Under the pieces are notes generated by a model that made no database searches, was not told the origin of the DNA, and worked only from the letters and a program-made list of their open reading frames with translations. Shown piece after piece: positions 1-3,163 of a DNA stretch of 64,000 nucleotides (positions are counted from its first letter, which is position 1; each line of letters begins with the position of its first letter). Made by a program: the position numbers and the translations under genes. Origin of the DNA: Nocardiopsis gilva YIM 90087 (GTDB taxonomy: Bacteria > Actinomycetota > Actinomycetes > Streptosporangiales > Streptosporangiaceae); NCBI RefSeq assembly GCF_002263495.1, contig NZ_CP022753.1, positions 930,001-994,000 on the forward strand, written 5' to 3'.

Positions 1-1691
1 TCACGCTGGCCATCCAGTTGGGCCTGCTGCTGCGTTCCCGCGGGGTGGCGCTGGCTTCCTACCTGTCCATGGTCGTGGCCGCAGCACTGTGGTCACCGCT
101 AATCTTCGCCGTGCAGCTGGCTGTCATGACCGCCTTCGGCTGGACCAGCCACGACGACGAATCGTCAGTATGGGTGGCAGGCCCGACAGAGGAGGTACTC
201 AAGCTCGCCCCCCTGGCCGCGGTGCTGATATTCGCCCGCAACCGCGCCGCCCGCTTCGGCATTGCCGACCACATCCTGCTGGGTGCGGCCTGCGGGGCGG
301 GTTTCGGACTGGCCGAGAACGTCTCCCGCGGCCTGGGCGGGTCGGGCGGCCCCAGCCTGTTGAGCGTCCTCACCACCATGGAGGACGGTGTCGGCCACAC
401 CTACTCCCTGTTCACCCTCTTCCCCGGTTGGACCTCCGACACCAGCATCGAAAGTTCCGGGCACGCAGTGTGGACCGCGCTGTTAGCCGGCGGTATCGGG
501 ATTGCCCGACGCTACGGACGCGTGCTGTGGTCCCCACTGGTGCTGGCACTGTTGGGCTGGGTGTGCCTGGACCACATGGCGTGGAACGAGCAGGCCGGCC
601 TGCTCAGCGCCGGGCTCCTGCCCGAGCCAGCACAGACGCTGCACGCGTGGCTGGGGTCGGGGTTCGCTGCCCGCCCCGCACTGCTCGCCATGATTCTGCT
701 GGCGGTCTGGCTCGACTATCGCACCCTGGCCAAGGTCCATCAGGGGCTGCCCCCGATCCCGGGAAAGATCGGTACGGGAAGCGGCCCGCCTCCGGCGTTC
801 GTCCTGGCGATCCTCACTGAGCTCGGCCTGCAGTGGCGAATGCTGCGGCGGGCGCCGTTGATGTATCCCCAGGCGACGGCCTTTGTCCGCGCACGCCGCG
901 AGCTGGGGTACGGACTTCACCGCGCCGCAGGACATCCCCGGCGCGACGCCCCGCCGCTCCGGCTGATGTGGCAGACCGGCGCCCGTCTGCACAACGCAGT
1001 CGCCATCGGGGTGGCGCTGATTATCACGGGCGCGGCTGTGCTGGCGGTCATGCAGGGCGATCCCGTGGCAGCGCACGCCTTCCTGGCCCCGCAACTGGAA
1101 AGCCTGGCCGACTGGTGGAACGGGCTCAGCCCTGGAGGGCAGTTCCTGGTCACCGCCGGTGGTGTCGCCGGGTTGATGCTCATCCCCGGCGTGGGCTTCA
1201 TGGCCGCGGTCGGAGCCGCCACGACTGCTACCGGTGTTGCGGCCAGTGGGCGTGACATCGCCCGTGCCATTCGTGACAAGGCCCCTGGAGCCCTTGCTGC
1301 GCACCTGGCGATCGCCGTCTTCGTGGGGCGGCTCCGGCCCGCCACAGTAGTCAAAGTCAACGGCCGGTGGCCGATCAACTCCCAATGGGCCGGAAAGGAG
1401 TATCGTGACTTCCGGCGATACCCCCAGGAGCTCTATGAAAAGTACGGCCCCGTACGGTTTACAGATAGAGGATATCCTGACTTCAGTCCGAACGCGCGGT
1501 TCACAGTTGATGTGCCGACAACCGGAAAGCGGTCCACAGATTTCAGGCTTGCCAATCAGGCGGCGGGACTTCCGGCAACTCCGAAGGGGTGGACATGGCA
1601 TCACGTCGAGGACGGCCGAACCATGCACTTGATTCCCTACGAACTGCATGACGCGGTTAAGCATAGCGGTGGTATAGCGAACAGCAGATGA
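1..1691 (+). CDS. PrsW-family intramembrane protease fused to C-terminal WHH nuclease toxin (5' partial)
   Basis: The frame is open from the window edge (codons in frame from base 3), so the true start lies upstream; a TTG at 18 is only a formal start. Counting from that TTG, the multi-pass membrane region carries the PrsW catalytic signatures: EExxK at 58-62 (PTEEVLK), FGLAEN at 96-101, a lone His at 149 and HxxxN at 186-190. More hydrophobic segments lie around 325-345, 375-410 and 425-440. The last ~110 residues are soluble and end in GWTWHH (W527, H528, H529) followed by LHDAVKHSGG, the hallmark of the HNH/EndoVII 'WHH' polymorphic toxin nucleases. PrsW is a site-2-type membrane metalloprotease; that it frees or exports its own nuclease tail is inference. 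The tail and next gene are less GC-rich than their neighbours, suggesting module exchange. A SUKH immunity gene follows at once, supporting the toxin reading. Confidence 0.85.
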   Translation, partial: TLAIQLGLLLRSRGVALASYLSMVVAAALWSPLIFAVQLAVMTAFGWTSHDDESSVWVAGPTEEVLKLAPLAAVLIFARNRAARFGIADHILLGAACGAGFGLAENVSRGLGGSGGPSLLSVLTTMEDGVGHTYSLFTLFPGWTSDTSIESSGHAVWTALLAGGIGIARRYGRVLWSPLVLALLGWVCLDHMAWNEQAGLLSAGLLPEPAQTLHAWLGSGFAARPALLAMILLAVWLDYRTLAKVHQGLPPIPGKIGTGSGPPPAFVLAILTELGLQWRMLRRAPLMYPQATAFVRARRELGYGLHRAAGHPRRDAPPLRLMWQTGARLHNAVAIGVALIITGAAVLAVMQGDPVAAHAFLAPQLESLADWWNGLSPGGQFLVTAGGVAGLMLIPGVGFMAAVGAATTATGVAASGRDIARAIRDKAPGALAAHLAIAVFVGRLRPATVVKVNGRWPINSQWAGKEYRDFRRYPQELYEKYGPVRFTDRGYPDFSPNARFTVDVPTTGKRSTDFRLANQAAGLPATPKGWTWHHVEDGRTMHLIPYELHDAVKHSGGIANSR

Positions 1692-1698
1692 GTTGCAA

Positions 1699-2148
1699 AT
1701 GAGCATCGGATTCATAGAGGTATTTCCACCAGCAACTGCCGACCAGATCATCGGCCTAGAACAGCATGTCGGTAGTCCAATCCCGCCGGCATTCCGTGCG
1801 TTCCTCGGGGCGAACAACGGTGGGCAACCGTATCCCAATTACCTGAGAACCAACCACGATGTCAGTGTCCACCTGTTCCTTGGGATCGGCCACAAGTGGG
1901 AGCCCTACTTCGATATCTACCGCTACCTGCGCGTCTACTCGGACCGCGTGATTCCCAGGTTTCTTCCCGTTGCCACGGACGAGGGTGGCAACCTCCTCTA
2001 CCTGTCCTGTAATGACAGCGACTATGGTCACGTCTACTTCTGGGACCACGAGCTCGAAGCCGAAGACGACGCGCCGCCTACGACGGAGAACATTACCTTC
2101 GTTGCCCCCGATTTCCGGGTCTTCTTCGATAACCTCCAACCGCGGTGA
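1699..2148 (+). CDS. SUKH (SMI1/KNR4) family immunity protein
   Basis: A 149-residue protein starting at the ATG 7 bases after the toxin stop; a TTG at 1693 is a weaker in-frame alternative. It has the SUKH layout: an N-terminal helix with IPPAFRAFLGANNGG, a middle LFLGIG/IPRFLPVATDEGGNLLYL strand pair, an acidic YGHVYFWDHELE segment and a closing FVAPDFRVFFDNL. SUKH proteins are the commonest immunity proteins of bacterial polymorphic toxins, usually binding nuclease toxins. Its position directly behind the WHH nuclease and the tiny gap argue that it neutralises that toxin and is translationally coupled to it. No strong ribosome binding site is visible, which fits coupling. Its partner specificity cannot be proved from sequence. 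Confidence 0.9.
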   Translation: MSIGFIEVFPPATADQIIGLEQHVGSPIPPAFRAFLGANNGGQPYPNYLRTNHDVSVHLFLGIGHKWEPYFDIYRYLRVYSDRVIPRFLPVATDEGGNLLYLSCNDSDYGHVYFWDHELEAEDDAPPTTENITFVAPDFRVFFDNLQPR

Positions 2149-2316
2149 CCCCTGGTGCTCCGCTTGTACGTCCGTTTTTTCGTGATTCACGAACTGCTTG
2201 TCTGCGGTGATGGCACCGCAGAGCCTGTGCTTGGCGGGGCGGGCGCGTCCCGTGTCGGTCGTTCCGATGTTCCCGGGGGAGCACAGCACTGGGGCCGCAG
2301 CACTGGGGAGCACAGC

Positions 2317-2353
2317 ACTGAGGGCGGAGGGGCCGTGCCCCTCCGCCCTCAGT
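2317..2353. terminator. Bidirectional hairpin between immunity gene and pstB
   Basis: A perfect 17-bp stem (2317-2333 with 2337-2353) closes on a 3-base loop. It sits between the convergent ends of the immunity gene (+) and pstB (-). There is no clear T-run, as is common for GC-rich actinobacterial terminators. Just before it the motif CAGCACTG recurs three times in 45 bases. Confidence 0.75.
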
Positions 2354-2383
2354 GCCGTCCTCGACGCCTCGTCGAACCGCCGG

Positions 2384-3163
2384 TTACCCGAAGCGGCCGG
2401 TGATGTAGTTCTCGGTCTCCTTCTTCTCCGGCTTGGTGAAGATCTTGTTGGTCTCGTCCATCTCGATCAGCTTGCCGGGCTTGCCGGTGCCGGCAAGGTT
2501 GAAGAAGGCCGTCTGGTCGCTGACGCGGGCCGCCTGCTGCATGTTGTGGGTGACGATGACGATCGTGAAGTTCTCCTTGAGCTTGGAGATCAGGTCCTCG
2601 ATCGCCAGGGTCGAGATCGGGTCGAGCGCGGAACACGGCTCGTCCATGAGCAGCACCGCCGGTTCGACGGCGATGGCGCGGGCGATGCAGAGGCGCTGCT
2701 GCTGGCCGCCCGACAGGCCCGCTCCAGGGCGGTTCAGCCGGTCCTTGACCTCGTCCCACAGGTTGGCGCCGCGCAGGGAGCTCTCGACGAGGTCGTCGGC
2801 GACGCTCTTGCTCAGCCGGTTGTTGTTCAGCTTCGCGCCCGCGATGACGTTGTCGTAGATCGACATGGTGGGGAACGGGTTGGGTCGCTGGAAGACCATG
2901 CCGATCTCCCGGCGGACCGCCACCGGGTCCACATCGGGGCCGTAGATGTCCAGGTCGTCGAGCATGACCTTGCCCTCGGCCCGGGCGCCCGGGGTCACCT
3001 CGTGCATGCGGTTGAGGGTGCGCAGGAAGGTCGACTTGCCGCAGCCGGAGGAGCCGATGAAGGCGGTCACCGAGCGGGGCTCGATGGTCATCGACACGTC
3101 CTCGACGGCGAGGAAGTCGCCGTAGTAGACGTGCAGTCCGGAGACGTCAATTCTCTTGGCCAC
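2384..3163 (-). CDS. pstB: Phosphate ABC transporter ATP-binding protein PstB
   Basis: This 259-residue ATPase energises high-affinity phosphate import through PstC/PstA at the inner face of the membrane. Visible motifs are Walker [10 protein letters not shown] near residue 37, the Q-loop in [11 protein letters not shown], the ABC signature LSGGQQQR, Walker B VLLMDEP with D-loop SALDP, and the switch His in [16 protein letters not shown] and the closing NYITGRFG are typical of PstB. The start is a GTG with GAGGA six bases upstream. It is the last gene of pstSCAB, 81 bases after pstA, and ends at a strong bidirectional hairpin. The length is normal for the family. Confidence 0.97.

What the first reader, a model, noticed from the sequence alone, without database searches (positions are those of the whole stretch)
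1699..2148. SUKH immunity gene tightly coupled to the PrsW-toxin
A SUKH (SMI1/KNR4) protein starts 7 bases after the toxin stop. This toxin/immunity adjacency is the strongest contextual proof that the fusion is an effector. Its pairing with a membrane protease fusion offers a defined two-gene module.
Basis: partly seen in the sequence, partly recalled or inferred. Interest (0 to 1): 0.6.

Follow-up and report, generated by a model that had tools for sequence, protein, structure and literature searches.

The report
Immunity gene paired with nuclease toxin
The small gene really does sit 7 bases behind a toxin gene and very probably encodes the protein that protects the bacterium from that toxin's DNA-cutting tail; this toxin and antidote pairing is known from many bacteria, here carried on an unusual membrane-protease carrier whose front end looks broken in this genome.

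Summary
Observation confirmed. Window 1699-2148 encodes a 149-aa SUKH-1 protein (PF09346, E 2e-18), and its ATG lies 7 nt after the stop of a PrsW + WHH-nuclease gene. Interpretation supported: it is almost certainly the cognate immunity protein.
- 34 of 35 WHH tails found in plasmids and genomes (this one included) have a SUKH gene directly downstream (22) or fused in the same ORF (12, mostly one genus).
- The predicted WHH tail matches chain A, and the predicted SUKH matches chain B, of a solved WHH toxin-immunity complex, 8BD1.
- A WHH/SUKH pair is experimentally proven in Bacteroidales (PMC12247911).
- Tail and SUKH share low GC against carrier and genome. A Nocardiopsis suaedae homologue has the same carrier with a different tail and a non-SUKH next gene: a swappable cassette.
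- About 4.5 kb with the pair lies between pit and pstB, 72-174 nt apart in relatives.

Caveat: just upstream of the window the carrier's N-terminus is split over three frames, so the toxin may be decaying or mis-assembled. PrsW carriers and WHH-SUKH pairing were both described in 2012. New member of a known kind; modest interest.

The parts
3..1691 (+). PrsW-WHH toxin gene; its 5' part lies upstream of the window
   Evidence: open frame from the window start to the TGA at 1689-1691
63..602 (+). PrsW intramembrane protease domain with EExxK, ENV, GHAVW and DHMAWN motifs
   Evidence: PF13367 E 3.8e-10; motifs shared with the Nocardiopsis suaedae homologue, which has DHMAYN for the last one
603..1340 (+). 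carrier C-terminal region and linker, shared with the N. suaedae homologue up to about residue 420
   Evidence: 62% identity to residue 426, then collapse
1341..1688 (+). WHH (HNH/EndoVII) nuclease tail
   Evidence: PF14414 E 1.7e-15; AlphaFold model matches 8BD1 chain A, TM 0.71-0.76, 37% identity; GC 56.6% against carrier 69.6%
1699..2148 (+). SUKH-1 immunity protein, 149 aa
   Evidence: PF09346 E 2e-18; model pLDDT 87.5; 3D5P Z 14.7 and 8BD1 chain B Z 9.2; GC 57.3%
2158..2238 (-). 81-nt arm of an inverted repeat that flanks the module; partner arm 2.7 kb upstream, outside the window; insertion-sequence remnant
   Evidence: related copy beside a DDE_5 transposase elsewhere in the genome
2308..2362 (.). 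strong hairpin between the SUKH gene and the convergent pstB, possible bidirectional terminator
   Evidence: 26-nt arms, 92% complementary, 3-nt loop; not called by the terminator scan
2384..3163 (-). pstB, chromosomal backbone gene bounding the island
   Evidence: 81-96% identical in relatives

Best explanation
The gene encodes the cognate immunity protein of the WHH nuclease tail immediately upstream. The SUKH protein is made together with the toxin, probably by translational coupling across the 7-nt gap, binds the C-terminal nuclease domain and blocks it, which protects the producer and its kin. Tail plus SUKH gene form one exchangeable cassette at the 3' end of a PrsW-protease carrier gene. 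Shown by sequence: both domains, the spacing, recurrent pairing, shared composition, tail swap in a homologue, island location. Inferred from solved and tested relatives: binding and neutralisation. Inferred only from the literature: PrsW-mediated release or export.
For: Domains and spacing. Of 35 WHH tails in plasmids and genomes, 22 have SUKH as the next gene, 12 are WHH-SUKH fusions and 1 (Lactococcus) has another neighbour. Separate tail and SUKH plasmid searches landed on the same loci in Burkholderia pyrrocinia and two Pseudoalteromonas plasmids. Among 22 WHH loci from viral contigs, 14 have SUKH downstream and 2 upstream. Fold: the tail model matches 8BD1_A and the SUKH model matches 8BD1_B, entry title 'RhsPWHH-RhsPI toxin-immunity pair'. 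Experiment in a relative: SUKH I2 rescues E. coli from the WHH toxin E2, and one SUKH domain suffices. Composition of tail and SUKH: GC 56.6 and 57.3% against carrier 69.6%. The carrier in N. suaedae has a different tail and a non-SUKH next gene.
Against: No direct test of this pair. SUKH proteins neutralise many unrelated toxins, and a single-SUKH homologue from Methylomonas failed to neutralise E2, so family membership does not guarantee specificity. Co-divergence of tail and SUKH is strong overall (r 0.65, 18 pairs) but falls to 0.18 between different taxonomic groups. Similarity to 8BD1_B is a shared fold only (8% identity; Foldseek E 0.015). No complex could be modelled here.
Confidence: 0.92

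Rival explanations
1. The module is decaying: the carrier is a pseudogene and the SUKH gene persists as an orphan immunity gene that protects against related WHH toxins of neighbours.
For: The N. suaedae carrier N-terminus matches three different frames of the upstream DNA within about 90 nt; the neighbouring purF, pit and pst genes are intact; the surroundings hold insertion-sequence remnants; orphan SUKH immunity is documented.
Against: Two breaks so close together in a GC-rich stretch could be assembly error. The rest of the frame, the PrsW motifs and the WHH residues are intact. This rival still treats the SUKH protein as WHH immunity.
Confidence: 0.35
2. Internal suicide device: the PrsW protease senses envelope stress and releases the nuclease inside the producer, with SUKH acting as an antitoxin rather than kin immunity.
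For: PrsW is a regulated intramembrane protease (family knowledge). No dedicated secretion gene was seen near the pair.
Against: The same WHH-SUKH cassettes sit on carriers of secreted toxins: a filamentous hemagglutinin with its ShlB partner, Rhs proteins, VgrG/PAAR operons, HINT pretoxins. A tail swap with a partner swap is typical of polymorphic secreted toxins.
Confidence: 0.15
3. The SUKH gene is an unrelated housekeeping or cell-wall-type Smi1/Knr4 protein that happens to be adjacent.
For: The superfamily is broad, and orphan relatives exist.
Against: 34 of 35 WHH tails carry a SUKH gene or domain; fusions exist; the SUKH gene shares the tail's composition; the whole insertion is absent between pit and pstB in relatives.
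Confidence: 0.03

Closest known systems
RhsP-WHH / RhsPI toxin-immunity pair (PDB 8BD1; RhsP also 8H8A-C)
   Same: WHH tail aligns at 37% identity, TM 0.71-0.76; the immunity chain has the same fold as the SUKH model, Z 9.2 over 106 residues
   Different: Rhs carrier instead of PrsW; immunity chain only 8% identical
E2-I2 effector-immunity pair of Bacteroidales T6SS (PMC12247911)
   Same: WHH nuclease neutralised by a SUKH protein, tested in E. coli and B. fragilis
   Different: T6SS effector; I2 has two SUKH domains, of which only the second is needed; here a single SUKH domain
PrsW-carried polymorphic toxins (Zhang et al. 2012, PMC3482391)
   Same: N-terminal PrsW membrane peptidase joined by a linker to a C-terminal toxin, mainly in Gram-positive bacteria
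   Different: In the passages read here, PrsW is paired with REase and deaminase toxins, among others; the WHH row does not list PrsW. PrsW-WHH looks like a new combination.
SUKH-1 structures 3D5P, 2ICG, 2PAG, 2PRV (YobK)
   Same: Z 12.9-14.7 over 119-131 residues
   Different: No toxin partner named in those entries

Membership tests
SUKH immunity superfamily (SMI1/KNR4, SUKH-1) | SMI1_KNR4 profile above the curated cut-off | tested here: met
   67.6 bits against 25.4
SUKH immunity superfamily (SMI1/KNR4, SUKH-1) | SUKH fold | tested here: met
   pLDDT 87.5; 3D5P Z 14.7, rmsd 2.4 over 123 residues
SUKH immunity superfamily (SMI1/KNR4, SUKH-1) | gene directly downstream of a toxin-domain gene | tested here: met
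   7-nt gap after PrsW-WHH
SUKH immunity superfamily (SMI1/KNR4, SUKH-1) | neutralises the cognate toxin | not testable with these tools
   needs co-expression; shown for the related E2-I2 pair
Tox-WHH nuclease | WHH profile with the conserved WHH, L, H and HxG residues | tested here: met
   PF14414 1.7e-15; WHH, LH and HSGG present
Tox-WHH nuclease | WHH fold | tested here: met
   8BD1_A, E 3.7e-07
PrsW-carried polymorphic toxin | N-terminal PrsW domain fused to a C-terminal toxin | tested here: met
PrsW-carried polymorphic toxin | toxin tail and immunity gene vary on a conserved carrier | tested here: met
   N. suaedae carrier, 62% identical, with another tail and a non-SUKH next gene; a single example
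PrsW-carried polymorphic toxin | intact full-length carrier in this genome | tested here: inconclusive
   N-terminus spread over three frames upstream of the window; assembly error not excluded
PrsW-carried polymorphic toxin | self-processing and export through the PrsW membrane domain | not testable with these tools
   proposed in the 2012 paper; no experimental test was found in the open-access library

The most novel reading that the evidence does not exclude
PrsW carriers form a self-contained toxin delivery route of actinobacteria in which tail-plus-immunity cassettes are exchanged on one membrane protease, and this WHH-SUKH member is a working weapon (its frame breaks being assembly errors).
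Probability: 0.25. Interest if true: 0.5.

Novelty: new member of a known kind. Interest (0 to 1): 0.27.

Why it matters
The pair itself is ordinary. Its value is that it gives a defined, compositionally marked tail-plus-immunity cassette on a PrsW carrier, with a sister carrier in Nocardiopsis suaedae bearing another tail and partner. That makes the 2012 proposal, that PrsW releases or extrudes toxins, directly testable. No experimental test of it turned up in the searches made here.

Tried and rejected
Carrier search in genome contigs and in plasmids: only N. suaedae, and nothing in plasmids. SUKH searches of viral contigs found no relatives, and a DNA pattern for the WHH motif found nothing. 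NCBIfam gave no family for either protein; PHROGs gave a family without known function; PADLOC gave only a weak partial match, PDC-M40A. Mirror-tree analysis looked strong (r 0.81 over 22 pairs, 0.65 over 18) but mostly reflects groups of relatives (between-group r 0.18; one or two per group r 0.24, p 0.08), so it is not used as proof. GC by codon position did not settle the frame breaks, because the N-terminus is proline-rich. Family-wide PrsW hits (71 of 343 genomes) were set aside: the ones read end without a toxin tail and appear to be a separate paralogue. A complex prediction was not possible, as the tool folds one chain.

Full report
Setting. The window is bases 930001-994000 of a single 6.14 Mb contig. 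Its family contains Nocardiopsis suaedae: genome G133 has a contig of the same length, 22112 bases, as NZ_JAQFWP010000090.1, and the same carrier match. The organism of the window itself was not named.

Observation. The gene at 1699-2148 encodes 149 residues that score 67.6 bits against SMI1_KNR4 (SUKH-1). Its ATG is 7 nt after the TGA of a frame with PrsW-protease, WHH and Colicin-DNase matches. No Shine-Dalgarno sequence is obvious in the gap, so translational coupling is likely (inference from the sequence). The genome has two other SUKH-1 genes.

Linkage. A tail search of plasmids and of family and phylum genomes gave loci whose surroundings were read one by one. A SUKH gene follows the WHH gene on the same strand in 22 of them, the window included: the window, L044-L046, L058-L063, L072-L077, L079 and L081-L085. 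They span Actinomycetota, Alpha-, Beta- and Gammaproteobacteria, Deinococcota and Bacillota. In 12 further loci (11 genomes of one genus, g70, and Streptomyces sp. NBC_01237) both domains lie in one ORF, WHH first and SUKH second, in the same order as the two-gene version; Pfam confirms WHH at 109-146 and SMI1_KNR4 at 174-309 in L047. The one exception, Lactococcus L080, has WHE instead of WHH and a DUF6985 gene downstream. Viral contigs gave 22 more WHH loci: 14 with SUKH downstream, 2 with SUKH upstream, and the rest with another neighbour, a divergent SUKH-like neighbour, or a contig end. Searching plasmids with the SUKH protein alone returned 11 records, three of them (B. pyrrocinia and two Pseudoalteromonas) beside the WHH tails found independently. 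Of the five other contexts read, four show no toxin next door, and in B. pumilus the SUKH gene follows an LXG toxin that already has its own immunity gene. SUKH without a toxin is therefore common; WHH of this type without SUKH is rare.

Structure. The SUKH model (pLDDT 87.5, pTM 0.84, 11 sequences) matches SUKH-1 structures at Z 12.9-14.7 and matches the immunity chain of 8BD1, titled 'Crystal structure of the RhsPWHH-RhsPI toxin-immunity pair', at Z 9.2 over 106 residues. The WHH tail model (pLDDT 87.2) has one significant PDB match, 8BD1 chain A, TM 0.71-0.76; sequence searches agree. A solved example of the predicted complex type therefore exists. Whether the interface is conserved here could not be tested.

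Function in relatives. PMC12247911 reports that the WHH toxin E2 of Bacteroidales inhibits E. coli, that SUKH protein I2 restores growth, that a single SUKH domain suffices, and that a single-domain homologue from Methylomonas does not protect. PMC10469887 lists Salmonella Rhs-WHH candidates next to SMI1_KNR4 genes. PMC3482391 lists Imm-SUKH, Imm28 and Imm37 for Tox-WHH and describes PrsW as a carrier, without PrsW in the WHH row.

Cassette. The carrier has GC 69.6% and GC3 0.83, the tail 56.6% and 0.62, the SUKH gene 57.3% and 0.72; 319 windows from long high-GC3 ORFs of the 64 kb average GC3 0.93, with a minimum of 0.73. The N. suaedae homologue shows the same step: carrier 70.3%, tail 56.9%, next gene 57.1%. 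Identity between the two carriers is mostly 0.5-0.8 per 30-residue block up to about residue 420 and 0.17 right after. The N. suaedae tail ends with an ExK-like motif, seen by eye; Pfam names neither that tail nor the next gene. Tail and partner thus appear to be exchanged together.

Island. In two relatives pit and pstB are convergent neighbours 72 and 174 nt apart; here about 4.5 kb lies between them. The pair is bracketed by an 81-nt inverted repeat, 86% complementary, at window 2158-2238 and 2.7 kb upstream, related to sequence beside a DDE_5 transposase elsewhere in the genome. This points to horizontal acquisition.

Carrier state. The N. suaedae carrier N-terminus matches the upstream DNA in three frames in succession: residues 1-103 in frame 3, a stretch ending at residue 132 in frame 2, and residues 132 onward in frame 1, with the changes falling between L002 9878 and 9964. 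The neighbouring housekeeping genes are intact. Either the assembly has local errors or the carrier is broken. The PrsW core, the WHH residues and the SUKH gene are intact.

Mechanism. Most likely: SUKH binds and blocks the WHH nuclease (inferred from 8BD1 and E2-I2). Release or export by PrsW is a proposal from 2012 for which the searches here found no experimental test. An internal suicide role is less likely, because the same cassettes ride on secreted-toxin carriers elsewhere.

Verdict. Real, correctly interpreted in its core, and of a known kind. The PrsW-WHH pairing, the tail swap and the island are worthwhile details; the frame breaks are the main caution.

Noticed in passing
L047-L057 (genus g70) and L078 (Streptomyces sp. 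NBC_01237): WHH and SUKH fused in one ORF in 12 loci; all have lost the 'LH' histidine (LH to VK) that most separate WHH toxins keep, suggesting a tamed, non-killing protein of unknown role.
   Followed up: partly
upstream of the window, L002 9651-9966: The N-terminus of the PrsW-WHH carrier is spread over three reading frames compared with the intact Nocardiopsis suaedae homologue.
   Followed up: partly
window 2158-2238 and L002 9348-9428: 81-nt inverted repeat, 86% complementary, flanks the toxin-immunity pair; related to sequence beside a DDE_5 transposase at 2.73 Mb of the genome.
   Followed up: yes
window 2308-2362: Near-perfect 26-bp hairpin with a 3-nt loop between the SUKH gene and the convergent pstB.
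   Followed up: no
L037 6510-6962 (-): 150-aa protein without a Pfam match behind the N. suaedae PrsW toxin with an ExK-like tail; candidate immunity protein of a new family.
   Followed up: partly
71 of 343 family genomes; G000:C1:5740620-5741342 in this genome: A roughly 730-aa PrsW paralogue; the copies read start with MLTRDLVLR-like sequence and have no toxin tail. Probably a separate, non-toxin protein.
   Followed up: partly
L103 3138-3608 and the ORF at L095 3116-3611: Non-SUKH downstream proteins paired with WHH tails in two viral contigs; L103 has no Pfam match; candidate alternative WHH immunity family.
   Followed up: no
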